Shown: positions 3,011-18,198 of the stretch, piece by piece | Layout of the letters: every line of letters begins with the position of its first letter | Position numbering within the stretch: the stretch's first letter is position 1 | Source: a virus | IMG/VR virus record: IMGVR_UViG_3300020183_002723 | Coordinates: 1-42,777 of that record | Reading direction: 5' to 3' (one strand) | DNA: 42,777 nucleotides | The notes under the pieces: generated by a model | Told to the model about the DNA's origin: nothing | Databases searched by the model: none | What the model saw: only the letters and a program-made list of their open reading frames with translations | Position numbers and translations under genes: made by a program

Positions 3011-3727
3011 ATGGAGTTTGGTATATTAAAAACAAAAATAGAAGACAAATTAGTTAGTTCATACGTTAATAATACAATGAAAAAGGATTTATTTGTATTT
3101 GAACAATTAATACTGAATAATACAAATTTAAGTAAAATATACTTAATGTATGATGAATTATCATCTAAAAAGGGTTTGAGTGAGTCTGTGGGTAACGACT
3201 TTATTTCTGAAAGTATTTTAGAATTTAAATCAATAAATAAAAACATAACCAAATCCGAATTAGATGAGGTAAATATGTGGATTGGTCACTTAAAATCTGA
3301 AAATAGGTATACCGACATTGATAACCTATTCACAGGTGATATTACAAAATTAGAAGAGAAAGTTAAAAGTAAAAAAAATATTTTAACAAATTTGATGGAT
3401 AACCAAACAATTAGTGAGTCAAAAACTAGTGTACCATTATCAAATTTAATGGAAATAGCTAACAAAACGGTAAACGATTATTTAGACACACTATCCGAGT
3501 CTGAGAAAAAAGAAGTTAAAAAAATAATTACCGAAGATGAAAGTAAGTTAAAGATAGAGTTTGATTTTATTAAAGAAAACTCAATCAACAGGTTAACAAA
3601 CCTAAAGTCAAATGAATCCGATAGTGAAGTAATTAAAACAATTAATGAAACAATATTAAAAATTGAAGGTGAGGAATTTAATAGAATTTCTTATGTTAAA
3701 TTAAAAAGACTTAACGAGGAACTTTAA
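3011..3727 (+). CDS. Helical charged protein, possible prohead core component
   Basis: No family is recognised. The 238 residues are rich in Lys, Glu, Asp, Asn and Ser, almost entirely predicted helix, with no Cys and only one Trp. Segments such as LDTLSESEKKEVKKIITEDE suggest coiled coils. Its place between portal and prohead protease is where T4 carries small prohead-core genes (gp67/gp68), so an internal scaffold or core role is a reasonable inference from position and composition only. Its stop codon overlaps by a few bases the stop of the convergent bS21 gene. The transcript probably ends at the hairpin at 3768-3792. Confidence 0.75.
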   Translation: MEFGILKTKIEDKLVSSYVNNTMKKDLFVFEQLILNNTNLSKIYLMYDELSSKKGLSESVGNDFISESILEFKSINKNITKSELDEVNMWIGHLKSENRYTDIDNLFTGDITKLEEKVKSKKNILTNLMDNQTISESKTSVPLSNLMEIANKTVNDYLDTLSESEKKEVKKIITEDESKLKIEFDFIKENSINRLTNLKSNESDSEVIKTINETILKIEGEEFNRISYVKLKRLNEEL

Positions 3728-3909
3728 TTTTGGTTTTTAAACTTTTCTCGATATATAGCTTTATTTAAAATCTGTCTTTTAATGACAGATTTTTTTTTAT
3801 ACTCTTTCCTATCGTTTAGAAAACTATTTTGTTTTGTTTTAATTACCTTACTCTTAAGTTCTTTAAGGGCTTTTTCGATTTCGTTCTTTCTGACTTTAAC
3901 TATTAACAT
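3724..3909 (-). CDS. rpsU: Ribosomal protein bS21 homologue
   Basis: This 61-residue, strongly basic protein has the bS21 pattern: N-terminal MLIVKVRKNEIEKALKEL (compare the bS21 beginning V-K-V-x-x-N-E with A-L-x-x-x-K), then a basic middle and RKEYKKKSVIKRQILNKA, matching the bS21 segment R-x-E/Y-x-K-P-S-x-x-K-R-x-x-x-x-K-A. bS21 binds the 30S platform near the 3' end of 16S rRNA; in Bacteroidetes it helps hide the anti-Shine-Dalgarno sequence. Phage-carried bS21 genes are known and are thought to swap into host ribosomes. The gene is antisense to its late-gene neighbours and has a host-type promoter upstream (3977-4007). No Shine-Dalgarno is visible before the ATG (AATAAAATT precedes it), unlike many cellular Bacteroidetes rpsU genes. 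Confidence 0.85.
   Translation of the reverse strand: MLIVKVRKNEIEKALKELKSKVIKTKQNSFLNDRKEYKKKSVIKRQILNKAIYREKFKNQN
3768..3799 (+). terminator. Rho-independent terminator of portal/core transcript
   Basis: AAATCTGTC (3768-3776) pairs with GACAGATTT (3784-3792) across a 7-base loop, and T's follow. It lies about 40 bases past the end of the + strand core gene and entirely inside the antisense bS21 coding sequence, so the same bases encode the basic bS21 C-terminal half and end transcription on the other strand. Confidence 0.7.
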
Positions 3910-3976
3910 AATTTTATTTAGATGTTTATTATATTGATATATATATAAATTTTTCGTAAACTTAATAAAAAATAAA

Positions 3977-4007
3977 CAAATATACGATGAAAAAAAGAAA
4001 TGAAAAA
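3977..4007 (-). promoter_or_regulatory. Possible host-type (Bacteroidetes) promoter for bS21
   Basis: Read on the minus strand, TATATTTG (3977-3984) matches the Bacteroidetes -7 element TAnnTTTG exactly. At a 19-base spacing the -33 position reads TTTT rather than TTTG. This would give a leader of about 60 bases before the bS21 ATG at 3909. The -33 mismatch makes it less certain than the promoter at 11730. Confidence 0.45.
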
Positions 4008-4467
4008 GGGGAAAACATCAAAAATAGATGGTTTTAAAAACTCAAAAGTGTTATACGGAACCGTAGATTCAAAAAATTTAAAATCTTTATATCTAAATTT
4101 ACAGACCTGGGTAGAACCAAAATACGAGTCTGACAACTGGTCCAGAGTTATCATGAACATGAGTAGATCAGTAAAACATTCAATATACAATAATTTAGAC
4201 ACTTCATTATTTAATAAAAATTATATAGTAGATCTGGATTTGAGGTCTAGTGGTATACAACCAAATAAAAAATCATTCATGAATTTAGAAATAAATCTAT
4301 ACCTTGTGGAAAGTATGGATTTTAAATCTAATCAAATAAAAAAATCATTAAAAAGTTTAGTAAAACAAATATATTCTGAAGTTTTAAATAATAATACCCA
4401 TTTTGATTTTTACTTAACTAAAAATGGAAATTATAAAGAAGTTATGGTAAAAACAGAAAAGGTTTAA
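4000..4467 (+). CDS. Hypothetical protein in head gene cluster
   Basis: The 155 residues show no recognised domain. The N-terminus is basic (KKGKTSKIDGFKNSKVLYG) and the middle contains LQTWVEPKYESDNWSRVIMNM, followed by alternating strands (IVDLDLRSSGI, FMNLEINLYLVE) and a C-terminal helix-strand unit, suggesting a small alpha/beta fold. It lies between the bS21 gene and the prohead protease, 21 bases before the latter's ATG. The ATG at 4000 is the only start in frame; an overlapping ATG at 3987 is in another frame and stops quickly. Its promoter is unclear because the preceding + strand transcript should end at 3799. A head-assembly accessory role is only positional inference. Confidence 0.7.
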   Translation: MKKGKTSKIDGFKNSKVLYGTVDSKNLKSLYLNLQTWVEPKYESDNWSRVIMNMSRSVKHSIYNNLDTSLFNKNYIVDLDLRSSGIQPNKKSFMNLEINLYLVESMDFKSNQIKKSLKSLVKQIYSEVLNNNTHFDFYLTKNGNYKEVMVKTEKV

Positions 4468-4475
4468 TATTTATT
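4468..4475 (+). promoter_or_regulatory. TATTTATT box (putative late promoter element)
   Basis: TATTTATT begins directly at the stop of the preceding gene and ends 13 bases before the protease ATG. Spacing and sequence match the box before the gene at 3011. Confidence 0.5.
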
Positions 4476-4488
4476 ATAAAACTTTAAA

Positions 4489-5214
4489 ATGAAAATATTA
4501 TCACCAAATGAAATCGGTAGGGGTATTCTAATTGAGTATGACGCTGGTTACATTAATCCGAAATCGGAAAATAACCATTATATTATGGAGTCCAAAAATT
4601 TTATGGATTACTCAAAACCATTTGAGTTCTACGCAGTACTCCAAAAGTATGACACACCCAATAGAAATGGACGTGTATACCCTAAGAATATATTAATGAG
4701 GGAAGCGGATAACTATCGGAAAATGATTGATAAGGGTATTTCACTATCCGAATTAAATCACCCAGAATCATCTCTAATTGATTTAGATCGTGCGTCACAC
4801 ATTATCACAGATATATGGTGGGATGGTCCGGTATTACTCGGTAAACTAAGATTGTTAACTAGTCCCGGATTTCATGAGAGAGGAATATGTTCAACAAAAG
4901 GTGATATAGCGGCTAACTATCTCAGACAAGGGGTTACACTGGGCATATCGTCTAGAGGAGTTGGGTCATTAAAAAAAGTGGGGGAGAGAAACGAGGTACA
5001 GGATGACTTTGAGTTAATTTGTTTTGACTTAGTTTCATCTCCGTCAACACCGGGAGCTTACTTATTTTTAAACAAAGATGATCGTTTTAAATATGAGGAA
5101 AATCTGGACGAAGAAAGAAAGGTGGATTTAGAGAGAGCTACAGGAATGAAATCATCATCTGTTGATCAAACAAAAAATTTAATGGATAAATTATCTAAGT
5201 TTCTTGACAAATAA
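4489..5214 (+). CDS. Prohead maturation protease (gp21-like)
   Basis: This protease processes scaffold and capsid proteins inside the prohead before packaging. The 241-residue protein has the phage prohead serine protease layout: RNGRVYPKNILMREA around 59-73, the catalytic His in SELNHPES (His91), and the nucleophile region GVTLGISSRGVGS (Ser154/Ser155), followed by a conserved FELICFDLVSSPSTPGA strand that should hold the remaining active-site contacts. A charged C-terminal tail (about 205-241) may be removed by self-cleavage, as in T4 gp21. Its position before scaffold and capsid genes fits. Confidence 0.93.
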   Translation: MKILSPNEIGRGILIEYDAGYINPKSENNHYIMESKNFMDYSKPFEFYAVLQKYDTPNRNGRVYPKNILMREADNYRKMIDKGISLSELNHPESSLIDLDRASHIITDIWWDGPVLLGKLRLLTSPGFHERGICSTKGDIAANYLRQGVTLGISSRGVGSLKKVGERNEVQDDFELICFDLVSSPSTPGAYLFLNKDDRFKYEENLDEERKVDLERATGMKSSSVDQTKNLMDKLSKFLDK

Positions 5215-5234
5215 AAAAATAAGTTATATTTTTG
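5204..5234 (+). promoter_or_regulatory. Host-type (Bacteroidetes) promoter for the 71-codon gene
   Basis: TTG (5204-5206, in CTTG), 20 bases, then TATTTTTG (5227-5234), a full match to the Bacteroidetes -7 element TAnnTTTG. The elements overlap the end of the protease gene. The transcription start would be near 5241, leaving a leader of about 18 bases before the ATG at 5259. Confidence 0.6.
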
Positions 5235-5258
5235 TCCTAAATTAATAAATTATAAATT

Positions 5259-5474
5259 ATGGAACAAGGACAAATGTATTTTGTAACCAAGATCACGTCA
5301 GATTTATTGGACAGTGAGACTGGTAAGGTTAGAAAAGTGAAAGAAGAAAAATTAGTTTTGGGGTATAGTCCGACTGATGTTGAAGCTAAGGTAACAAAGG
5401 TGTATGAAAATTACACTATGGACTGGAGGATTACGTCAATAACTGAAAGTAAGATTGATGAGGTTATAGAATAA
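5259..5474 (+). CDS. Small DUF4494-like protein
   Basis: The 71 residues run MYFVTKITSDLLDSETGKVRK, then KVKEEKLVLGYSPTDVEAKVTK and WRITSITESKIDEVI. The order (strand with an internal K-V, a sequence like 'Y-S-x-T-D-V/A-E-A-K', then a strand 'I-x-S-I-T-E/K-S-K-I-x-E-V') resembles DUF4494, a small Bacteroidetes family of unknown function; I recall this by eye, so the family call is tentative. It has its own host-type promoter (5204-5234) and a strong terminator (5501-5532), which makes it a one-gene transcription unit inside the late head cluster, probably expressed early. It has no membrane segment or Cys. Confidence 0.7.
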   Translation: MEQGQMYFVTKITSDLLDSETGKVRKVKEEKLVLGYSPTDVEAKVTKVYENYTMDWRITSITESKIDEVIE

Positions 5475-5500
5475 TATAAAAATAATTTTATATTTTTATA

Positions 5501-5533
5501 AATGGGGATACGTTAGTGTCCCCATTTTTTTTC
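5501..5533 (+). terminator. Rho-independent terminator
   Basis: GGGGATAC (5504-5511) pairs with GTGTCCCC (5516-5523) across the loop GTTA, with one G-T pair; flanking AAT/ATT extends the stem to 11 pairs. It is followed by an unbroken T run. It closes the small gene's unit and probably also the protease transcript. Confidence 0.9.
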
Positions 5534-5574
5534 ACTTAAAATCCGAATTATTTGAATTTTTTTAATTTCAATAC

Positions 5575-5582
5575 TATTTATA
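5575..5582 (+). promoter_or_regulatory. TATTTATA box (putative late promoter for scaffold/capsid)
   Basis: TATTTATA lies between the terminator at 5501-5533 and the scaffold ATG, 17 bases upstream of it. Because the upstream transcript is terminated, a new start is needed here, which makes this one of the best arguments that the box is a promoter. Confidence 0.6.
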
Positions 5583-5599
5583 TGGAAACAAAATAATAA

Positions 5600-7108
5600 A
5601 TGAAAAAAAATTCTTTAGTAGAGGATACCCTATTCCAGATTAATAATCTGGAGAATGTTATTAAAGAGAATGCACAAGGAATACTTCAATCAACCATGAA
5701 AGAAGAAATCAAATCTTTAGTAAAAGAATCGTTAATGGAACAAAGTGAACCAGCGATTGGTGATGAAGACGAAGTAGAAGGGGCTGTAGAGCCTATGGAC
5801 GACACTCAAGATCTACCTGATGATGACATGATGGATGATGATGACATGATGGATGATGATGACATGATGGATGATGATGACATGATGGATGATGAAACTA
5901 TTGACATGACTGACGCAACACCGGAAGAGGTTCTTAAGGTGTTTAAAGCTATGAGTGATGAAGATGGTATTATTGTTAAAAAAGACAATGAGATGATTCA
6001 TCTACAAGATGATGATAATGAGTATTTAATTAAATTAAACGAGTCCATGAAAGATTTTGAATATGACGAAATCGACTTTGATGACGATTTTGAGATTCCG
6101 GTAAAACCTAAAAAACACAGAGATCACGACCGTGGTTCTAAATTTAACAAACATCCTAAATCAAAAAAATTCGATATGGATCTAGACGATCTAGAACTTG
6201 ACGAATATGATTACATGGGACAAGATTTGTATGAAGAAGACCCAATGGGATATGATGATTTGGATGAGACAGATCAGATGGTTTATGAAATGGATGATGA
6301 AATGTCTGGAGCTTATGACCCAGATGACACCATTTATGAAATTGAACTAGATGTCGATTCTGATGATGATTTTGATGAAGTTGATTTTGATGACGACGAG
6401 GTTGTCTTTGAATCTAAATCATTTAAAGCTAAAGGTGTTGGTATGGGATCACCTTCAAAGTTTAAATACAATAAAAGACCTAACTTAGATAACGGGTTTG
6501 ATGAAGACATGAAAGAAGGTCCTAAACACAAATTTACTGGTAAAGCTAAATTTGAGTACAAAGAGGAGGTTAATTCTGATGGTAAATTAAAACCACTATC
6601 TAAGAAAAAAGAGACAAAGGAAGCTTCAAGAACTCTTGGTAATGGAAAAAGATTTGGTAGAATGGGCTTAGATAAACCAAAAGCAGCTCCAAGACACCTA
6701 AGAAAAGAGAGTACCGAGGAACTTCATGTTTTAAGAAATAAAAATGAGGAGTATAGAAAAGCTTTGGATCTTTTTAGAAACAAATTAAATGAAGTGGCTG
6801 TGTTTAATTCTAATTTAGCTTACGCTACACGATTATTCACTGAACACTCAACAACTAAACAAGAGAAACTTAATATTCTTAAAAGATTTGACAATGTTGA
6901 TACTTTAAAAGAATCTAAGAATCTTTATCAGTCAATTAAAGGAGAACTTTCTGAAGGAAAATCTGAAGCTGGTAACATCACAGAATCAATCGAGAGAACA
7001 GTATCTAAAGCACCAACAAATGGTTCAGCTGTAAATCTAATTGAATCTAAAACTTACGAGAATCCTCAGTTTTTAAGAATGAAGGACTTAATGACAAAAA
7101 TAAAATAA
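5600..7108 (+). CDS. Acidic prohead scaffold protein (gp22-like by position)
   Basis: A 502-residue, extremely acidic, Met/Asp-rich protein directly upstream of the capsid gene and downstream of the protease: the place and character of a T4-type internal scaffold (gp22), which fills the prohead and is digested by the protease. The N-terminal 50 residues form an amphipathic helix; residues 74-98 are a tandem repeat of the DDMMDD type; several further Asp/Glu-rich stretches alternate with basic patches (about 170-190, 290-370). The C-terminal third (about 375-500) is helical with LRNKNEEYRKALDLFRNKLNE, likely a coiled coil that contacts the shell. Sequence similarity to gp22 is not obvious, so the call rests on position and composition. 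Confidence 0.75.
   Translation: MKKNSLVEDTLFQINNLENVIKENAQGILQSTMKEEIKSLVKESLMEQSEPAIGDEDEVEGAVEPMDDTQDLPDDDMMDDDDMMDDDDMMDDDDMMDDETIDMTDATPEEVLKVFKAMSDEDGIIVKKDNEMIHLQDDDNEYLIKLNESMKDFEYDEIDFDDDFEIPVKPKKHRDHDRGSKFNKHPKSKKFDMDLDDLELDEYDYMGQDLYEEDPMGYDDLDETDQMVYEMDDEMSGAYDPDDTIYEIELDVDSDDDFDEVDFDDDEVVFESKSFKAKGVGMGSPSKFKYNKRPNLDNGFDEDMKEGPKHKFTGKAKFEYKEEVNSDGKLKPLSKKKETKEASRTLGNGKRFGRMGLDKPKAAPRHLRKESTEELHVLRNKNEEYRKALDLFRNKLNEVAVFNSNLAYATRLFTEHSTTKQEKLNILKRFDNVDTLKESKNLYQSIKGELSEGKSEAGNITESIERTVSKAPTNGSAVNLIESKTYENPQFLRMKDLMTKIK
5821..5892 (+). repeat. Four exact tandem copies of an 18-bp unit in the scaffold gene
   Basis: The unit TGATGACATGATGGATGA occurs four times head to tail without a mismatch, encoding Asp-Asp-Met-Met-Asp-Asp blocks. 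Perfect identity at the DNA level, including third positions, points to recent slippage or expansion. It also keeps antisense frames open, producing false ORFs. Confidence 0.95.
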
Positions 7109-7135
7109 ATAAACCTAAAAATAAAAACCTAAAAA

Positions 7136-9031
7136 ATGGGAGCATTATTAGAATCAGGTCTTGTGGGTAACATCGGGTTAAAACACCTTAAAGTTATCAA
7201 AGAAGACACAATAAACAAATGGGACAGATTAGGGTTCCTAGAGGGTCTTAAAGGACACTTAAAAGAAAACGTAGCTCAGTTATATGAGAACCAAGCGTCT
7301 TTCCTAATTAACGAAGCAACTTCTGAAGGTTCAAATGGAGCTTTCGAAACTGTTGTTTTCCCTATCGTGAGAAGAGTATTCTCTAAATTATTAGCTAATG
7401 ATATCGTATCAGTACAAGCTATGAATTTACCTATCGGTAAATTATTCTATTTCATTCCTCGTATCCAAGGTTACGCTACCGGAGCTACTCCAAGTGCAGC
7501 TAACAATTGGGAAGGGTGGGGTGAACATTATTCACCAGTTGGGTCACCTCAAGCTGTTAATTCAGGTAAAAATGATCCAGGACAAGGTTATCCAGGATAT
7601 GGGACTGAAGGTGTTAATAATTTCCCTTACAAGAAAAATCTTTATGATTTATTTTATGAAGGTTCTGAGGGTGAATTAGATCCTCCAGGATTATTTGACT
7701 ATTCTAAAGGTTCTTGGACTGCTGTTACTCAAACTACAGAAATGCAAGTATGGGAAAATGGTGGTTTAGTTGCGGCTAACGCTGGACAATTAACAGGTCA
7801 AACTAATTTACGTAAAGTTATTGTTAAACTTTGTGGATGGACTGACGTACCAGGTGTTGGTAAATTAATCGGACCTGATGGTAATGAGGTTGATTCTGAA
7901 ACTTTCCTTTCAGATTTAAGACTTTACGCTACAGAAGATTTCTTAGACGCGGAATCACCATGTTCACCACTTTACCAAACTGATGGTACAACACCAAAAT
8001 CATTATTATTTAGAGTTGTAACCCAAATTTACGGTAAGGGAATTGTTCAACCAACATCAACAACGTCGTATACTGAGTATCCAGGTAATGGTAATGGTGG
8101 AGCTTACAACAACATCTGTAGTCAAAATGGTTGTATCTATTTAGAAGTTGATTTATCATGTCCAGCTTGTGCTACATGTGGTGATTCATCATTAGATGGT
8201 TATACGGGTTCTACTAGTGCTGATGATGTTAACATTGAAGCGATTTCAGCTGTTTGGAGACGTTACAAAAATCTAGAGTTTGAAGATCAAATCGGTGAGG
8301 TTTCTTTCGATTTAGAATCTGTTACAGTTTCTGTATCTGAAAGAAAACTAAGAGCACAATGGTCACCAGAATTAGCTCAAGACGTTGCGGCATTCCACAA
8401 TATCGACGCTGAAGCTGAATTAACAGCTTTATTGTCTGAACAAGTAGCTGCGGAAATTGACCGTGAAATCTTACGTGACTTACGTAAAGGTGCGGCTTGG
8501 AACCTACGTTGGGATTACAACGGATGGAGAAGAGTACAACAAGTAACTTCTTACACTCAAAAAGACTGGAATCAAACATTGATTACAGCGATCAACCAAT
8601 TGTCAGCTCAAATCCACAAGTCAACTCTTCGTGGTGGTGCTAACTGGATCGTTGTTTCTTCTGAGGTTTCAGCTATCTTTGATGATTTAGAATACTTCCA
8701 CGTATCTAACGCTTCACCTGAGCAAGATCAATACAACATGGGTATCGAAAGAGTTGGTACTTTAGCTGGTCGTTACCAAGTGTATAGAGATCCTTACTTC
8801 CCACCAAACCAAATCTTGTTGGGTCATAAAGGTACTTCTTTATTAGACACTGGATACATCTACGCTCCGTACGTACCTCTACAATTAACACCTACAATGT
8901 ATAACCCATTCAACTTCACACCTATCAAAGGTATCATGACAAGATACGCTAAGAAAATGGTTAACAACCGATTCTACGCACGTATCACTGTTGATGGAGT
9001 TCGTACATTTGATTTAAGAGAATTGAGATAA
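7136..9031 (+). CDS. Major capsid protein (gp23-like)
   Basis: This forms the hexamers of the head shell. The N-terminal 60 residues (with LKVIKEDTINKWDRLGFLEG) are a gp23-type prosequence, presumably cut near INEATSEG (59-66) by the prohead protease. Then FPIVRRVFSKLLANDIVSVQAMNLPIGKLFYFIPRI (split around residues 75-110) matches the conserved start of the HK97-fold shell domain, and the C-terminal half (EISAVWRRYKNLEFEDQIGEV onward) also fits gp23. At 631 residues it is about 110 longer than T4 gp23; the extra length lies around 115-370 and includes a Cys-rich loop (about 327-350: C-x4-C then C-x2-C-x2-C). No box is visible directly upstream, so it is likely co-transcribed with the scaffold gene, and a terminator follows. 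Confidence 0.95.
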   Translation: MGALLESGLVGNIGLKHLKVIKEDTINKWDRLGFLEGLKGHLKENVAQLYENQASFLINEATSEGSNGAFETVVFPIVRRVFSKLLANDIVSVQAMNLPIGKLFYFIPRIQGYATGATPSAANNWEGWGEHYSPVGSPQAVNSGKNDPGQGYPGYGTEGVNNFPYKKNLYDLFYEGSEGELDPPGLFDYSKGSWTAVTQTTEMQVWENGGLVAANAGQLTGQTNLRKVIVKLCGWTDVPGVGKLIGPDGNEVDSETFLSDLRLYATEDFLDAESPCSPLYQTDGTTPKSLLFRVVTQIYGKGIVQPTSTTSYTEYPGNGNGGAYNNICSQNGCIYLEVDLSCPACATCGDSSLDGYTGSTSADDVNIEAISAVWRRYKNLEFEDQIGEVSFDLESVTVSVSERKLRAQWSPELAQDVAAFHNIDAEAELTALLSEQVAAEIDREILRDLRKGAAWNLRWDYNGWRRVQQVTSYTQKDWNQTLITAINQLSAQIHKSTLRGGANWIVVSSEVSAIFDDLEYFHVSNASPEQDQYNMGIERVGTLAGRYQVYRDPYFPPNQILLGHKGTSLLDTGYIYAPYVPLQLTPTMYNPFNFTPIKGIMTRYAKKMVNNRFYARITVDGVRTFDLRELR

Positions 9032-9052
9032 TCAATATATCTTTAGTATAAG

Positions 9053-9083
9053 AAAAAGGTCAGAGAAATCTGACCTTTTTTAT
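9053..9083 (+). terminator. Rho-independent terminator after capsid gene
   Basis: A perfect 12-pair stem, AAAAAGGTCAGA (9053-9064) with TCTGACCTTTTT (9069-9080), closed by a GAAA tetraloop, lies 21 bases after the capsid stop. It ends in T's. The A-rich/T-rich ends make it potentially active on both strands. Confidence 0.93.
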
Positions 9084-9111
9084 TTTATACACATTAATAT
9101 GTTTTTACATA

Positions 9112-9119
9112 TATTTATA
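9112..9119 (+). promoter_or_regulatory. TATTTATA box before the secreted protein gene
   Basis: TATTTATA lies between the capsid terminator and the ATG at 9123, only 3 bases from the ATG. As with the boxes at 524 and 18182, so small a distance would imply leaderless translation if this is a -10 type element. Confidence 0.45.
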
Positions 9120-9122
9120 TGT

Positions 9123-10187
9123 ATGAAATATATATTAATAACACTATTGTTTTTGTCTTTATTTAATTTAAGGTCACAAACACCATATAAATTTGATTAT
9201 GTGGAAACATTTGATGTTGATTGGTCTGGAATATGGTGGACACCCATATCCACAACCAACTATTACACGAACGCTTCGGTATCACCAACCACGAGTGCGG
9301 TATTATACGGAACTGGTGGTGGGTCTTCAGTTTACGAGTCTGATTGGTACTCATTTCCAAATTTAGTCGTAGATCCTGGATACGATTACCAATTTAAATT
9401 TAGATTGGGTTCATATAGATTTACATCAACAGCTACAACTAGAGGTGTCGATGTCGCGGATTATATTACAGTACAATTATCAACTGATGGTGGGTTAACA
9501 TATACAAATGAACTTCGTATCACTGGTAATAGTAACGCTTATTGGAATTACAATACGTCCGGTGTTTACATAAAAACAGCTAACGGTACTCTAACCACGA
9601 TTGGTCCATCAGCTGGTGGTGATAGAACAACAACTGGTGATGGATATTCCGTAATACAATTAAACATACCACCAGGTACATCACAAATAGCTATTGATAT
9701 ATTCTCTAGAGCTAACGCTGCTGGTGAAGAATGGTGGATGGATAATTTTGAGTTGATTAAAACCGGAGGTCCTTTACCTGTTGAATTAATTTATTTTGAG
9801 GGTACTGGGTACCAACGTCATAATTTACTTAAGTGGTCAACAGCTACAGAACATAATTCGGATTATTTTTCAGTACAAAGGAGTCCTAATGGTGTTAATT
9901 GGTCTGAAGTTGTTACCATACAATCAAGTGGAAACTCAACAGAAAAAATTGATTACACACATATTGATGACTATTTAAACAATGGTACGGTATATTATAA
10001 ATTAATACAATATGATTTTGATGGTAAATTTAAGGAGTATGGGCCAATATCAATCACATATACACAACCAAGTAAAAAGGTTATAAAGTATGTCAATACT
10101 TTAGGTCAGGAGATTGATTTCACATATAAGGGGATTGTATTTGAGGTATATGACGATTTTACCACAAAAAAAATAATTAGGTGGTAG
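9123..10187 (+). CDS. Secreted protein with T9SS-like C-terminal sorting tail
   Basis: I choose the ATG at 9123 rather than 9099 because it gives a clean signal peptide (MKYILITLLFLSLFNLRSQ, cleavage about residue 18-19). The mature part has a beta-sandwich N-terminal domain (about 20-215, Trp/Tyr/Thr rich, ending in GEEWWMDNFELIK). Next comes the Bacteroidetes module PLPVELIYFEG...NLLKWSTATEHNSDYFSVQRS (about 220-310), very common just before type IX sorting domains. The last 35 residues (KKVIKYVNTLGQEIDFTYKG ... YDDFTTKKIIRW) resemble a type A T9SS C-terminal signal. In a host cell this would be sent to the outer surface. In a phage gene cluster it is unexpected; it could be surface exclusion, host adhesion change, or a gene captured from a Flavobacterium-type host. 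Its function is unknown. Confidence 0.85.
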   Translation: MKYILITLLFLSLFNLRSQTPYKFDYVETFDVDWSGIWWTPISTTNYYTNASVSPTTSAVLYGTGGGSSVYESDWYSFPNLVVDPGYDYQFKFRLGSYRFTSTATTRGVDVADYITVQLSTDGGLTYTNELRITGNSNAYWNYNTSGVYIKTANGTLTTIGPSAGGDRTTTGDGYSVIQLNIPPGTSQIAIDIFSRANAAGEEWWMDNFELIKTGGPLPVELIYFEGTGYQRHNLLKWSTATEHNSDYFSVQRSPNGVNWSEVVTIQSSGNSTEKIDYTHIDDYLNNGTVYYKLIQYDFDGKFKEYGPISITYTQPSKKVIKYVNTLGQEIDFTYKGIVFEVYDDFTTKKIIRW

Positions 10188-10389
10188 ATAACGTTCTTAT
10201 CGCTTTTGAGATTATTTCGGTCTCACCGATAGTGAAAGCTCCTCGGTTGTGAGCGGATTTAACAGACTCAACTAGGAAGTAAATTGATTTTTCCCTATCC
10301 ATAGTGGATAACATAAGTTCTAGGTGTTCCTCACTTAGAATATTTATGGACCCAAACAAATTACCATATATTTCCTCTTTTTCTTCCAT
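10177..10389 (-). CDS. Small conserved-looking hypothetical protein
   Basis: The longest frame starts at 10443, but its first 18 residues (MYYFLYFFIIYHYNINIF) are encoded by AT-rich promoter sequence, so I take the internal ATG at 10389, giving 70 residues beginning MEEKEEIYGNLFGSI. The protein is acidic to neutral and helical, with ILSEEHLELMLSTMDREKSI and a C-terminal GAFTIGETEIISKAIRTL. No family is recognised. It converges on the secreted protein gene with an 11-base overlap and is divergent from the gene at 10408. Confidence 0.65.
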   Translation of the reverse strand: MEEKEEIYGNLFGSINILSEEHLELMLSTMDREKSIYFLVESVKSAHNRGAFTIGETEIISKAIRTLSTT

Positions 10390-10394
10390 AAAGA

Positions 10395-10402
10395 TATTTA
10401 TA
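10395..10402 (+). promoter_or_regulatory. TATTTATA box in divergent gap
   Basis: TATTTATA lies 5 bases before the ATG at 10408, in the 18-base gap between divergent genes. Confidence 0.45.
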
Positions 10403-10407
10403 TTATA

Positions 10408-11313
10408 ATGATAAATAATAAAAAAATAAAGGAAATAATACAAGAGGTAACCTCAACAAATGGAAGTCGTGGTTCATACGTTGGTCCGTTACAGGTTGGT
10501 ATTCGTTTGTTTGAAAAAAAAAATCTAGATCCATTTACAGTTCCTGTTTCTAAGTATGATAGTCCAGAACTAGAGTATGATAGTTATGATGGTAAAATGG
10601 ATACACCAAAAAATAAAATAAAATCATTAGAAAAAAAAGCTAAAAAGATTTCAAATTTTATGAAAAACCACCCAGAATCAACATCAAGTGATGAAGATGG
10701 TAACATAATAAATCCATTCCCAGGTAAAATAAACGAAGCGGATACAGCTATTTCAGCTGGGGGATATAATGGACCTGTTGAACTTGGTTTACGTAAATGG
10801 AAAAGACATGTTTTGGGTCCATATACTGATGAGGTTGGTCACCACACAACAAAAAAACACAAAGAGAAAACACTTAAAAATAATATAAATCGAATTGTGG
10901 GGGTGTGGGAAAAAGATCCACACACAAAATCACACAATATTGATACATACCCAGTACATACAATTAACGAAGACCTGGGAGTTTGGTTTGGCACCAAGAA
11001 AAAACCTAAAGGATCCAAACAACCAAAAGGTCCATGGGTTAATATATGTCGAAAAGTTGATGGTAAACATCCACCATGTGGTAGACCTGACACCGATAAG
11101 GGAGCTTATCCAAAGTGTAGAGCTTCTGGTGTTGCTGGTAAAATGTCAGATTCACAAAAAAAAGCTGCTTGTCAACAAAAAAGAAAAGCTGAGAAAAAAG
11201 ATACACAAACCGGTAAGGGTCAAAAACCAGTTATGACTTCATATAAGACACGTAAGGAATCTATTGACGATCTAGTTGGTAGAATTATTACCGAGATTAG
11301 AAATTCTTTCTAA
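10408..11313 (+). CDS. Protein with duplicated GPxxxG(I/L)R motif and DUF5872-like C-terminal domain
   Basis: The 301 residues contain two copies of a short unit, GSYVGPLQVGIRLFEKKNLDPFT (about 21-43) and GGYNGPVELGLRKWKRHVLGPYTDEV (about 116-141), each starting a Lys-rich helical stretch. The C-terminal part (about 195-275) reads WVNICRKVDGKHPPCGRPDT then AYPKCRASGVAGKMSD and KKAACQQKRKAEKK. This four-Cys, basic pattern resembles DUF5872, which I recall from phage and giant-virus proteins and which may bind metal or nucleic acid. The final helix (ESIDDLVGRIITEIRNSF) resembles the C-terminal helices of other proteins here. A virion-associated or DNA-binding role is inference. Its end overlaps the convergent gene by 42 bases. 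Confidence 0.75.
   Translation: MINNKKIKEIIQEVTSTNGSRGSYVGPLQVGIRLFEKKNLDPFTVPVSKYDSPELEYDSYDGKMDTPKNKIKSLEKKAKKISNFMKNHPESTSSDEDGNIINPFPGKINEADTAISAGGYNGPVELGLRKWKRHVLGPYTDEVGHHTTKKHKEKTLKNNINRIVGVWEKDPHTKSHNIDTYPVHTINEDLGVWFGTKKKPKGSKQPKGPWVNICRKVDGKHPPCGRPDTDKGAYPKCRASGVAGKMSDSQKKAACQQKRKAEKKDTQTGKGQKPVMTSYKTRKESIDDLVGRIITEIRNSF
10410..10417 (-). promoter_or_regulatory. TATTTATC box variant for the small minus-strand gene
   Basis: Read on the minus strand this is TATTTATC, 20 bases before the ATG at 10389. It differs from the common box only in the last base and overlaps the start of the + strand gene. Confidence 0.3.
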
Positions 11314-11712
11314 AACGTTGTGTAATGAATTTTTAATCTGTGAATTGACAGTGTCCTCATAAGATAATCTTCTTTTTTCGGTTTCCATGTCAAATATTTG
11401 TATTATTCTTTCCCAGTCACGATTAGATAACTTAACACTGTAATGATAAACATGATTTGTTAAATCAACTCTATTGTAGTCCATCGTAACAAATATATCG
11501 AGTTCTTTATTCTCCATATATCGTTTATTGGACATGGGGGCAATCATGAATTTTGTACTAGAATGTTTTATAACTTTTAGACAAATCATAAAACATGTTT
11601 TTTCATATGTAGCTGTCTCCTCTTCATATGTGGGTATGGTTCGACCTTTTTTAAACCAAATATAAAATCTCAACTTTAATCGTCTAAAAAATCTAAATAC
11701 TTTCTTTTTCAT
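11272..11712 (-). CDS. Hypothetical protein with basic N-terminus and host-type promoter
   Basis: The 146-residue protein begins with a strongly basic amphipathic segment (MKKKVFRFFRRLKLRFYIWF, then KKGR), which could bind membrane or nucleic acid. The middle contains TCFMICLKVIKHSSTKFMIAP and ELDIFVTMDYNRVDLTNHVYHY, alternating strands, followed by a helical C-terminus. No family is recognised. A perfect Bacteroidetes promoter lies upstream (11730-11760), which suggests early, host-driven transcription although it is surrounded by structural genes. Its 3' end overlaps the convergent DUF5872-like gene by 42 bases, so the two transcripts would be antisense to each other there. Confidence 0.75.
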   Translation of the reverse strand: MKKKVFRFFRRLKLRFYIWFKKGRTIPTYEEETATYEKTCFMICLKVIKHSSTKFMIAPMSNKRYMENKELDIFVTMDYNRVDLTNHVYHYSVKLSNRDWERIIQIFDMETEKRRLSYEDTVNSQIKNSLHNVLERISNLGNNSTN

Positions 11713-11729
11713 AATATTAATTTGTTCAA

Positions 11730-11760
11730 CAAATATACACGAAAAAAGTAATTAAACAAA
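11730..11760 (-). promoter_or_regulatory. Perfect host-type (Bacteroidetes) promoter
   Basis: On the minus strand: TTTG (11757-11760), 19 bases, TATATTTG (11730-11737). Both elements and the spacing match the Bacteroidetes housekeeping consensus TTTG-N19-TAnnTTTG exactly. The start site would be near 11723, about 10 bases before the ATG at 11712. Confidence 0.75.
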
Positions 11761-11776
11761 TTTTTTAATTTTTTTT

Positions 11777-12232
11777 CTAACAATAAGGGGGTGAACAACG
11801 TTTTTTACCATCAAGTCCTGGTTTGGTTCCTTTACATACTTGAACGGCGTATCCGTTAGCGTAAGCACTTGGGTAAACGTCAAATTTAGACTTAGCTGCT
11901 GACTTACCTCTAGAACATAGTTTAGTACCGGATTTTTTTCTACCCTCAAACATCATGTCTTTATCGTCAATATTCATTGACATATCCATCGTGTCTTTTT
12001 TGGATTCGTTCATAATAAAATCAAAAACCTGGTCCATATTATTTTTAGCTTCAGATATATGATCTTGAGCCCAATCGTGTCCATTTTCTAATATAGATTC
12101 CACCATTTCTTGATCCAAATCCAATAATAGGTCACACTGTCGTCTCATTTGTTCAAGGTTTGAGAAGAACATATACCTAGATGACATATGTTCTTCTTTT
12201 AATATTCTCTTAATTATTCTTTCAATTTTCAT
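11777..12232 (-). CDS. Small protein with Cys-containing phage C-terminal domain
   Basis: Of 151 residues, the N-terminal 100 are helical and acidic (MKIERIIKRILKEEHMSSRY; DQEMVESILENGHDWAQDHI). The last 50 residues contain SGTKLCSRGKSAAKSKFDVY and PSAYANGYAVQVCKGTKPGL, ending in a Cys-Pro-Pro-Tyr-Cys type tail. I recall this 'LC-x-RGK-x-AAK-x-KF-x-VYPSAYANG-x-AVQVCKG' domain as common in diverse phage proteins of unknown role; with four Cys it may be a small metal-binding or DNA-binding unit. The N-terminal IKRILKEE helix resembles the N-terminus of the 10408 protein. It follows the gene at 12237 after 4 bases, so they form one unit under the box at 12634. Confidence 0.8.
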   Translation of the reverse strand: MKIERIIKRILKEEHMSSRYMFFSNLEQMRRQCDLLLDLDQEMVESILENGHDWAQDHISEAKNNMDQVFDFIMNESKKDTMDMSMNIDDKDMMFEGRKKSGTKLCSRGKSAAKSKFDVYPSAYANGYAVQVCKGTKPGLDGKKRCSPPYC

Positions 12233-12236
12233 ATCA

Positions 12237-12629
12237 TTAATTATTTAATCCAAACATTCCACCCAATGTTACCATATTTAATTGTGTAACGGGTGTTCCG
12301 TACCCATCAGTCCACACAGGGTGTGGTGGAGACACCTGTGTTACAGTTGATCCAGTTGATCCACAATCACAACATATTACACATTCGAAGTACTCATTTC
12401 CTGAATTTCTTGGTTGTAAACGGTCACACTCAATACAATCAGTATATGATATTAAACTAGTAACACCTTCTGTTGGTGGATCTAAAGTTAGATCACCAAT
12501 TTCATAACAACCTGGTGTTGTTCTTCCGGTAAAATATATGAAATAAGTACCGGGTAGTATCGAAAACGATCCCGAGTCAATTACCGGACTTCTAGATCCG
12601 TCACAATTACGTGTTAAATAGTAAGCCAT
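12237..12629 (-). CDS. Cys-rich hypothetical virion-associated protein
   Basis: The 130 residues have no recognised domain. The N-terminal half is beta-rich (GSFSILPGTYFIYFTGRTTP), followed by a Cys-dense stretch with CIECDR and ECVICCDCG, then a Pro/Gly/Thr-rich tail. The Cys pattern, in a phage that also has Cys-rich segments in the capsid and two fibre-like proteins, suggests a surface-exposed virion protein. It lies in the baseplate/tail cluster and has its own TATTTATA box 4 bases before the ATG. Confidence 0.7.
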   Translation of the reverse strand: MAYYLTRNCDGSRSPVIDSGSFSILPGTYFIYFTGRTTPGCYEIGDLTLDPPTEGVTSLISYTDCIECDRLQPRNSGNEYFECVICCDCGSTGSTVTQVSPPHPVWTDGYGTPVTQLNMVTLGGMFGLNN

Positions 12630-12633
12630 ATCT

Positions 12634-12641
12634 TATAAATA
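12634..12641 (-). promoter_or_regulatory. TATTTATA box on minus strand
   Basis: Read on the minus strand as TATTTATA, it ends 4 bases before the ATG at 12629 in a 22-base gap. Confidence 0.45.
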
Positions 12642-12651
12642 TTACGTTTAA

Positions 12652-18181: not shown

Positions 18182-18189
18182 TATAAATA
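18182..18189 (-). promoter_or_regulatory. TATTTATA box at start of tail operon
   Basis: Read on the minus strand as TATTTATA, it lies in the 20-base gap between the late sigma gene and the first tail-region gene. This is exactly where late transcription of the structural block would need to start. The spacing to the ATG is only 3 bases. Confidence 0.5.
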
Positions 18190-18198
18190 TCTTTTTTG

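What the first reader, a model, noticed from the sequence alone, without database searches (positions are those of the whole stretch)
9123..10187. Phage gene for a signal-peptide protein with a type IX secretion-like C-terminal tail
A clean signal peptide, a PLPVEL...KWSTA module and a final K-x-I-type tail are the hallmarks of Bacteroidetes T9SS cargo, yet the gene lies right after the capsid gene with a phage-type box. The phage may hijack the T9SS to place a protein on the infected cell's surface, for example for superinfection exclusion or altered gliding/adhesion.
Basis: partly seen in the sequence, partly recalled or inferred. Interest (0 to 1): 0.85.

Follow-up and report, generated by a model that had tools for sequence, protein, structure and literature searches.

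The report
Phage gene for swappable surface proteins
Next to its shell-protein gene this phage carries a gene for a secreted, probably sticky protein that ends in a short tail shared with exported proteins of its likely hosts, and related phages swap the front part of that gene while keeping the tail, which suggests an overlooked way for phages to dress the cells they infect.

Summary
Window 9123-10187 encodes a 354-aa protein: signal peptide with the Bacteroidota 'Q-rule' site, MAM/CBM-like jelly roll, fibronectin-like PLPVEL domain and a 40-aa C-terminal tail. The literal prediction fails: no curated T9SS model (types A, B, C) scores it. But the same tail ends signal-peptide proteins with varied upstream sequence in Crocinitomicaceae-type Flavobacteriales (20 of 20 sampled), nearly all T9SS (SprA)-positive, and one IMG/VR ortholog carries a canonical type A tail instead. 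The tail is most likely an uncatalogued, lineage-specific T9SS-type sorting tail; export is untested. The larger finding lies beyond the given interval. Over 400 viral contigs encode a relative of the PLPVEL+tail module. In all 65 loci with this phage's capsid gene the module gene lies 0.1-2.7 kb downstream on the same strand; 47 of 50 records hold exactly one. Its front part is exchanged between relatives, homology resuming within 15 nt of the module start in two thirds of (non-independent) pairs; the window differs from relative L159 this way. Phage-borne T9SS cargo is known (Cryophage, crAss-like phages); the tail class and fixed exchange slot appear new. The displayed protein's role is inferred.

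The parts
7136..9031 (+). Gp23-type major capsid protein gene, the fixed upstream neighbour of the slot
   Evidence: Pfam PF07068 7.7e-72; PHROG 138; present upstream of the cargo gene in 65 loci
9052..9081 (+). terminator-like hairpin with T run after the capsid gene
   Evidence: 13-pair stem; such sites are not above chance in number in this region
9110..9119 (+). phage promoter-like box TATATTTATA, 3-4 nt before the start codon
   Evidence: box enriched upstream of window genes, 11/43 vs 0.94 +/- 1.0 expected
9123..9176 (+). signal peptide, residues 1-18; Gln19 at +1 (Q-rule)
   Evidence: alignment A1, Gln invariant; 75/81 C-module proteins
9177..9770 (+). exchangeable N-terminal domain, residues 19-216, MAM/CBM-like jelly roll
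   Evidence: AF2 pTM 0.74; Z 10-13 to MAM, CBM61, gingipain adhesin domains; absent from relative L159
9771..10064 (+). PLPVEL domain, residues 217-314, fibronectin-III-like; first half of the conserved C-module
   Evidence: AF2 pLDDT about 85-93; Z 9-12 to FnIII domains; homology with L159 resumes at 9770
10065..10184 (+). short C-terminal tail, residues 315-354, sorting-signal-like
   Evidence: alignment A5 with host tails; host proteins
10177..10389 (-). conserved small ORF, downstream border of the slot
   Evidence: 52-70% identical homologs downstream of the cargo gene in L004, L005, L008-L010
10408..11313 (+). conserved gene of unknown function, downstream flank
   Evidence: PHROG 727, 1.7e-6; syntenic in most loci

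Best explanation
The gene is a 'cargo slot' of a T4-like phage of Crocinitomicaceae-type Flavobacteriales. The protein is made from a phage-type promoter next to the capsid gene, crosses the inner membrane by Sec, loses its signal peptide before Gln19, and is exported by the host T9SS, which recognises the short C-terminal tail, a lineage-specific relative or replacement of the type A sorting domain. It ends up on, or is released from, the infected cell. The N-terminal jelly roll is the effector and probably binds a glycan or surface protein (receptor masking against further phages, or altered adhesion). The effector part is exchanged between phages by recombination between the conserved upstream region and the conserved PLPVEL module, so phages sample different surface proteins while the export part stays fixed. 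Shown by sequence: anatomy, tail shared with host proteins, fixed position, one copy per phage record, exchange boundary, purifying selection on the module. Inferred: late expression, T9SS as exporter, surface location, binding function, benefit to the phage.
For: Signal peptide with Q-rule Gln (PMC5837995). Same tail at or within 4 residues of the C-terminus of host proteins with signal peptides and varied upstream sequence, 20/20 sampled, with or without the PLPVEL domain. Tail in 88/150 genomes of that order, 86 of them SprA-positive, but 2/296 phylum-wide, both SprA-positive. In most bacterial relatives the PLPVEL domain is followed by a canonical type A domain (L022 and L028 score on TIGR04183). 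Family member L110 carries a canonical type A tail (TIGR04183 31.4 bits, cut-off 23; PF18962 44.6, cut-off 27). Fixed slot in 65/65 capsid-bearing loci. One copy in 47/50 records. Exchange boundary at the module start (window vs L159; L155 vs L153; 401/603 pairs within 15 nt). Module dN/dS median 0.16 over 77 pairs. Jelly-roll fold like MAM, CBM and gingipain adhesin domains.
Against: No curated T9SS sorting model scores the tail. Profile comparison with canonical type A domains aligns only 19 columns (hhalign probability 16%, E 0.0016), so homology to type A is unproven. SprA presence cannot discriminate inside the order (147/150 positive). The 603 pairs are not independent, and a sharp homology edge could partly reflect stronger constraint on the module. 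L110 is a 4.4-kb contig without a phage hallmark gene. No export, localisation or function data exist.
Confidence: 0.72

Rival explanations
1. The protein is Sec-exported only. It stays in the periplasm or outer membrane, and the PLPVEL+tail module is a structural or binding domain, not a T9SS signal.
For: No T9SS model scores the tail; weak profile match to type A.
Against: Host proteins of varied content end in the same tail, always terminal, which is how sorting signals look; an ortholog replaces the tail by a canonical type A domain; tail restricted to a T9SS-bearing order.
Confidence: 0.17
2. It is a virion component, such as a capsid decoration protein like T4 Hoc, because it follows the capsid gene and has Ig/fibronectin-like domains.
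For: Position after the capsid gene in 65/65 loci; late-type promoter box; beta-sandwich domains.
Against: Signal peptide with Bacteroidota Q-rule cleavage site throughout the family, which would remove it from the cytoplasm where virions assemble; the module occurs in bacteria and in phages with unrelated neighbours.
Confidence: 0.07
3. A host cargo gene picked up by chance (moron) or misassembled host DNA, without function for the phage.
For: N-domain and C-module relatives exist in host cargo proteins.
Against: Syntenic in 65 loci, one copy per record, dN/dS 0.16 on the module, own phage-type promoter box.
Confidence: 0.04

Closest known systems
Cryophage T9SS cargo genes (PMC7468147)
   Same: Phage-encoded T9SS cargo with cargo proteins that vary between related Bacteroidota phages
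   Different: Those carry recognised type A sorting domains on three variable genes (endoglucanase, GH39, PA14 protein); here one gene per record, a fixed slot behind the capsid gene, a short tail unknown to the models, a binding-type domain, and exchange at the domain border
crAss-like phage BACON and T9SS sorting-domain ORFs (PMC6949934)
   Same: T9SS sorting-domain proteins near head genes in Bacteroidota phages
   Different: Recognised sorting domains, BACON repeats, different phage lineage; no exchange slot reported in the passages read
T9SS type A sorting domain (TIGR04183, PF18962)
   Same: C-terminal position, signal peptide, a glycine-led strand followed by a lysine-bearing last strand; follows the PLPVEL domain in many host proteins
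   Different: About 40 aa instead of about 75-100; no YPNP strand; no model score
Gingipain cleaved-adhesin, MAM and CBM jelly rolls
   Same: Predicted fold of the N-domain (Z about 10-13)
   Different: Only about 6-14% identity; ligand unknown
Domain-swapped phage adhesins such as tail-fibre tips (established knowledge)
   Same: Conserved module with exchanged recognition part at a fixed locus
   Different: Signal peptide and export-type tail instead of a virion attachment domain

Membership tests
T9SS type A cargo (TIGR04183 / PF18962) | Sec signal peptide | tested here: met
   By inspection and alignment; Q-rule site invariant; no dedicated predictor available
T9SS type A cargo (TIGR04183 / PF18962) | C-terminal domain scoring above the curated cut-off | tested here: not met
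   No sorting model for P0001 or its relatives; controls L022, L028 and family member L110 do score
T9SS type A cargo (TIGR04183 / PF18962) | PNP-type first strand and full-length Ig domain | tested here: not met
   Tail is about 40 aa and lacks the PNP that is invariant in control alignment A7
T9SS type A cargo (TIGR04183 / PF18962) | Terminal motifs D/E (glycine-led strand, last strand with Lys) | tested here: inconclusive
   Similar by eye in A5, but the profile comparison aligned only an earlier strand
T9SS type A cargo (TIGR04183 / PF18962) | T9SS-dependent export in vivo | not testable with these tools
   Needs a host and T9SS mutants
T9SS type B cargo (TIGR04131 / CHU_C) | Model score | tested here: not met
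   No hit
T9SS type C cargo (NF033708) | Model score | tested here: not met
   No hit for P0001, 12 C-modules or the host tail proteins scanned
Short-tail proteins of Crocinitomicaceae-type Flavobacteriales (group defined here) | Signal peptide ending before Gln plus the 40-aa tail at the C-terminus | tested here: met
   Alignment A5 and 20 sampled host proteins
Phage-encoded T9SS cargo (Cryophage kind) | In a phage genome, with variable cargo part | tested here: met
   Capsid, portal and protease neighbours; exchange of N-parts
Phage-encoded T9SS cargo (Cryophage kind) | Recognised T9SS sorting domain | tested here: not met

The most novel reading that the evidence does not exclude
T4-like phages of Bacteroidota carry a dedicated cargo-exchange locus behind the capsid gene: a single gene whose effector domain is replaced like a cartridge while a conserved module delivers it through the host T9SS, using a sorting-tail class missing from current catalogues and shared with many host proteins.
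Probability: 0.6. Interest if true: 0.83.

Novelty: new variant of a known kind. Interest (0 to 1): 0.72.

Why it matters
If true, phages of an abundant aquatic bacterial group routinely place their own exchangeable proteins on the surface of infected cells through a host secretion system. That would make testable why phages carry secreted cargo at all (exclusion, adhesion, aggregation). It would also add a short, 40-residue sorting tail to the known T9SS signals, so secretomes of Crocinitomicaceae-type bacteria are now undercounted, and it gives a simple marker for linking uncultured phages to these hosts.

Tried and rejected
Direct family assignment: P0001 has no NCBIfam or PHROG match and only sub-threshold Pfam matches. 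PDB sequence search gave only weak matches to fluorescent proteins (E >= 0.1), taken as chance. Profile comparison of the tail with canonical type A domains did not establish homology. Co-occurrence of tail and SprA as a test for T9SS: uninformative inside the order, where 147/150 genomes have SprA. First full-length AF2 model: N-domain poorly resolved, so the domain was modelled alone. Foldseek on the full-length model gave low TM-scores. Clustering N-domains by single linkage merges most of the longer ones into one group, so the number of distinct cargo types was not quantified. PHROG scan of neighbours in non-T4 contigs named a portal in only one (L012); in the others it found groEL, thymidylate synthase, a dehydrogenase or nothing. 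Literature searches found no description of this tail or slot in the held library; subscription papers and preprints were not searchable. Host prediction by spacers was not attempted.

Full report
What is there. The window is a 42.8-kb virus record with a T4-type head module: portal 1190-2989, head maturation protease 4489-5214, Gp23-type capsid protein 7136-9031. Directly downstream, 9123-10187(+) encodes 354 aa. The start at 9123 fits the family; an in-frame ATG at 9099 exists. The protein has a signal peptide followed by an invariant Gln, which is the Bacteroidota 'Q-rule' (PMC5837995), an N-domain (residues 19-216), a PLPVEL domain (217-314) and a 40-residue tail.

Domains. Modelled alone, the N-domain reaches pTM 0.74, mean pLDDT 70, and resembles MAM domains (Z 12.9, 2.8 A over 145 residues), CBM61 (Z 12.3) and the gingipain cleaved-adhesin domains (Z about 11). 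Many unrelated jelly rolls score nearly as well, so this gives a fold, not a ligand. The PLPVEL domain is fibronectin-III-like (Z 9-12). The tail is predicted as confident strands (pLDDT about 88-94).

The T9SS question. No curated sorting model scores the protein or its relatives. The C-module was then sought in bacteria: all 80 best loci are Bacteroidota by record title, apart from one titled only 'bacterium'. In most of those examined the PLPVEL domain is followed by a canonical PNP-type tail, and controls score on TIGR04183. In Fluviicola/Crocinitomicaceae-type genomes the short phage-type tail follows instead, and it also occurs alone on proteins without the PLPVEL domain, including leucine-rich-repeat, LamG-like and hydrolase-like proteins (domain names by eye except where one search lists them). 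In 20 of 20 sampled host proteins the tail is terminal and a signal peptide ending before Gln is present. The tail profile matches 88/150 genomes of that order (E 1e-3) but 2/296 phylum-wide (E 1e-6). SprA is present in 7/7 first genomes, 147/150 of the order and 228/296 of the phylum. One family member from IMG/VR, L110, has the same N-domain and PLPVEL domain but a canonical type A tail. Reviews state that the last 22 residues of one type A domain suffice for export and that terminal Lys residues matter (PMC10202324), so a short tail is plausible. The T9SS assignment is nevertheless an inference: profile similarity to type A is weak.

Beyond the given coordinates. At least 407 viral stretches encode a relative of the C-module. 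In the 80 best, nearly all end in the short tail, and the proteins run from about 350 to 920 aa with N-parts including CUB, fn3-like, GEVED and T9SS-associated galactose-binding domains (some matches below the curated cut-off). In 65 of 65 loci with a window-type capsid gene, the module gene lies 95-2648 nt downstream on the same strand. Of 50 virus records searched with the tail profile, 47 have exactly one match and 3 none. The P0001 family itself also occurs in phages without the T4-type neighbours, for example L007, L011-L013; a portal of another kind is near it in L012.

Exchange. The window and L159 are collinear from 3020 to 9088 (86.7% nt identity) and again from 9770 to 12410 (81.3%); between, where the promoter, signal peptide and N-domain lie, there is no nucleotide match. 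The second block starts at the first codon of the C-module (9771; 7798 in L159). L155 and L153 show the same: identity of 88% ends 37 nt into the gene's frame and resumes 3 nt into the module, with identical module proteins. Over 603 pairs with related upstream DNA and unalignable N-parts, the homology resumes within 15 nt of the module start in 401, median +3. Pairs share ancestry, so this is no independent count. Proteins without any N-domain BLAST match share the module at 54% median identity, up to 100%. The module is under purifying selection (median dN/dS 0.16).

Mechanism. Best reading: a cargo slot from which the phage exports an exchangeable binding protein through the host T9SS onto or off the infected cell. 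Why phages need it is open: masking of receptors against other phages, changed adhesion or aggregation, or interaction with grazers all fit. Rivals are a Sec-only periplasmic protein, a virion decoration protein, and a functionless moron; the signal peptide and conserved slot argue against the last two.

Comparison with the known. T9SS cargo in phages has been reported: Cryophage with three variable type A cargo genes (PMC7468147) and crAss-like phages (PMC6949934). This case is a variant: another phage group, an uncatalogued tail, one gene at a fixed site, and exchange at the domain border. It is not a member of types A, B or C by their models.

Verdict. Interest 0.72.

Noticed in passing
window, e.g. 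9110-9119, 10394-10402, 12634-12642(-), 18182-18190(-): A sense-strand box ATATTTAT/TATTTATA precedes 11 of 43 genes (0.94 expected, none antisense). It resembles the reverse complement of the T4 late box TATAAATA and lies only 3-5 nt before several start codons, so some messages may be leaderless.
   Followed up: partly
host genomes G001-G155, e.g. L265-L284: A 40-aa C-terminal tail (K-x-[IL]-[IV]-K-[IV]-x-[DN]-L-x-G-[QR]-E ... Y-x-D-G-[TS]) on signal-peptide proteins in the Crocinitomicaceae-containing order, with no Pfam or NCBIfam model.
   Followed up: partly
window 5600-7108: Protein between protease and capsid genes with a run of DDDMM repeats and a very acidic first half; scaffold-like by position, no family match. 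Its length varies among relatives (484-561 aa).
   Followed up: no
window 10408, 11777; L004:8126, L004:10962, L008:5202, L014:11292: Several otherwise different proteins near the head genes begin with a similar short stretch (like I-x-R-I-[IV]-x-x-[IV]-L-x-E-E or E-E-E-x-x-R-I-L-x-L-H). It might be a capsid-targeting leader cut by the head protease.
   Followed up: no
L004, L008-L010, about 1-3 kb around the slot: Other small genes without homologs in the window come and go on either side of the cargo gene, so the slot region is variable as a whole.
   Followed up: no
L103, L106-L108, L111: Relatives of P0001 whose tails deviate from the common short tail and are not matched by its profile in the three records searched; possibly further sorting-tail variants.
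   Followed up: no
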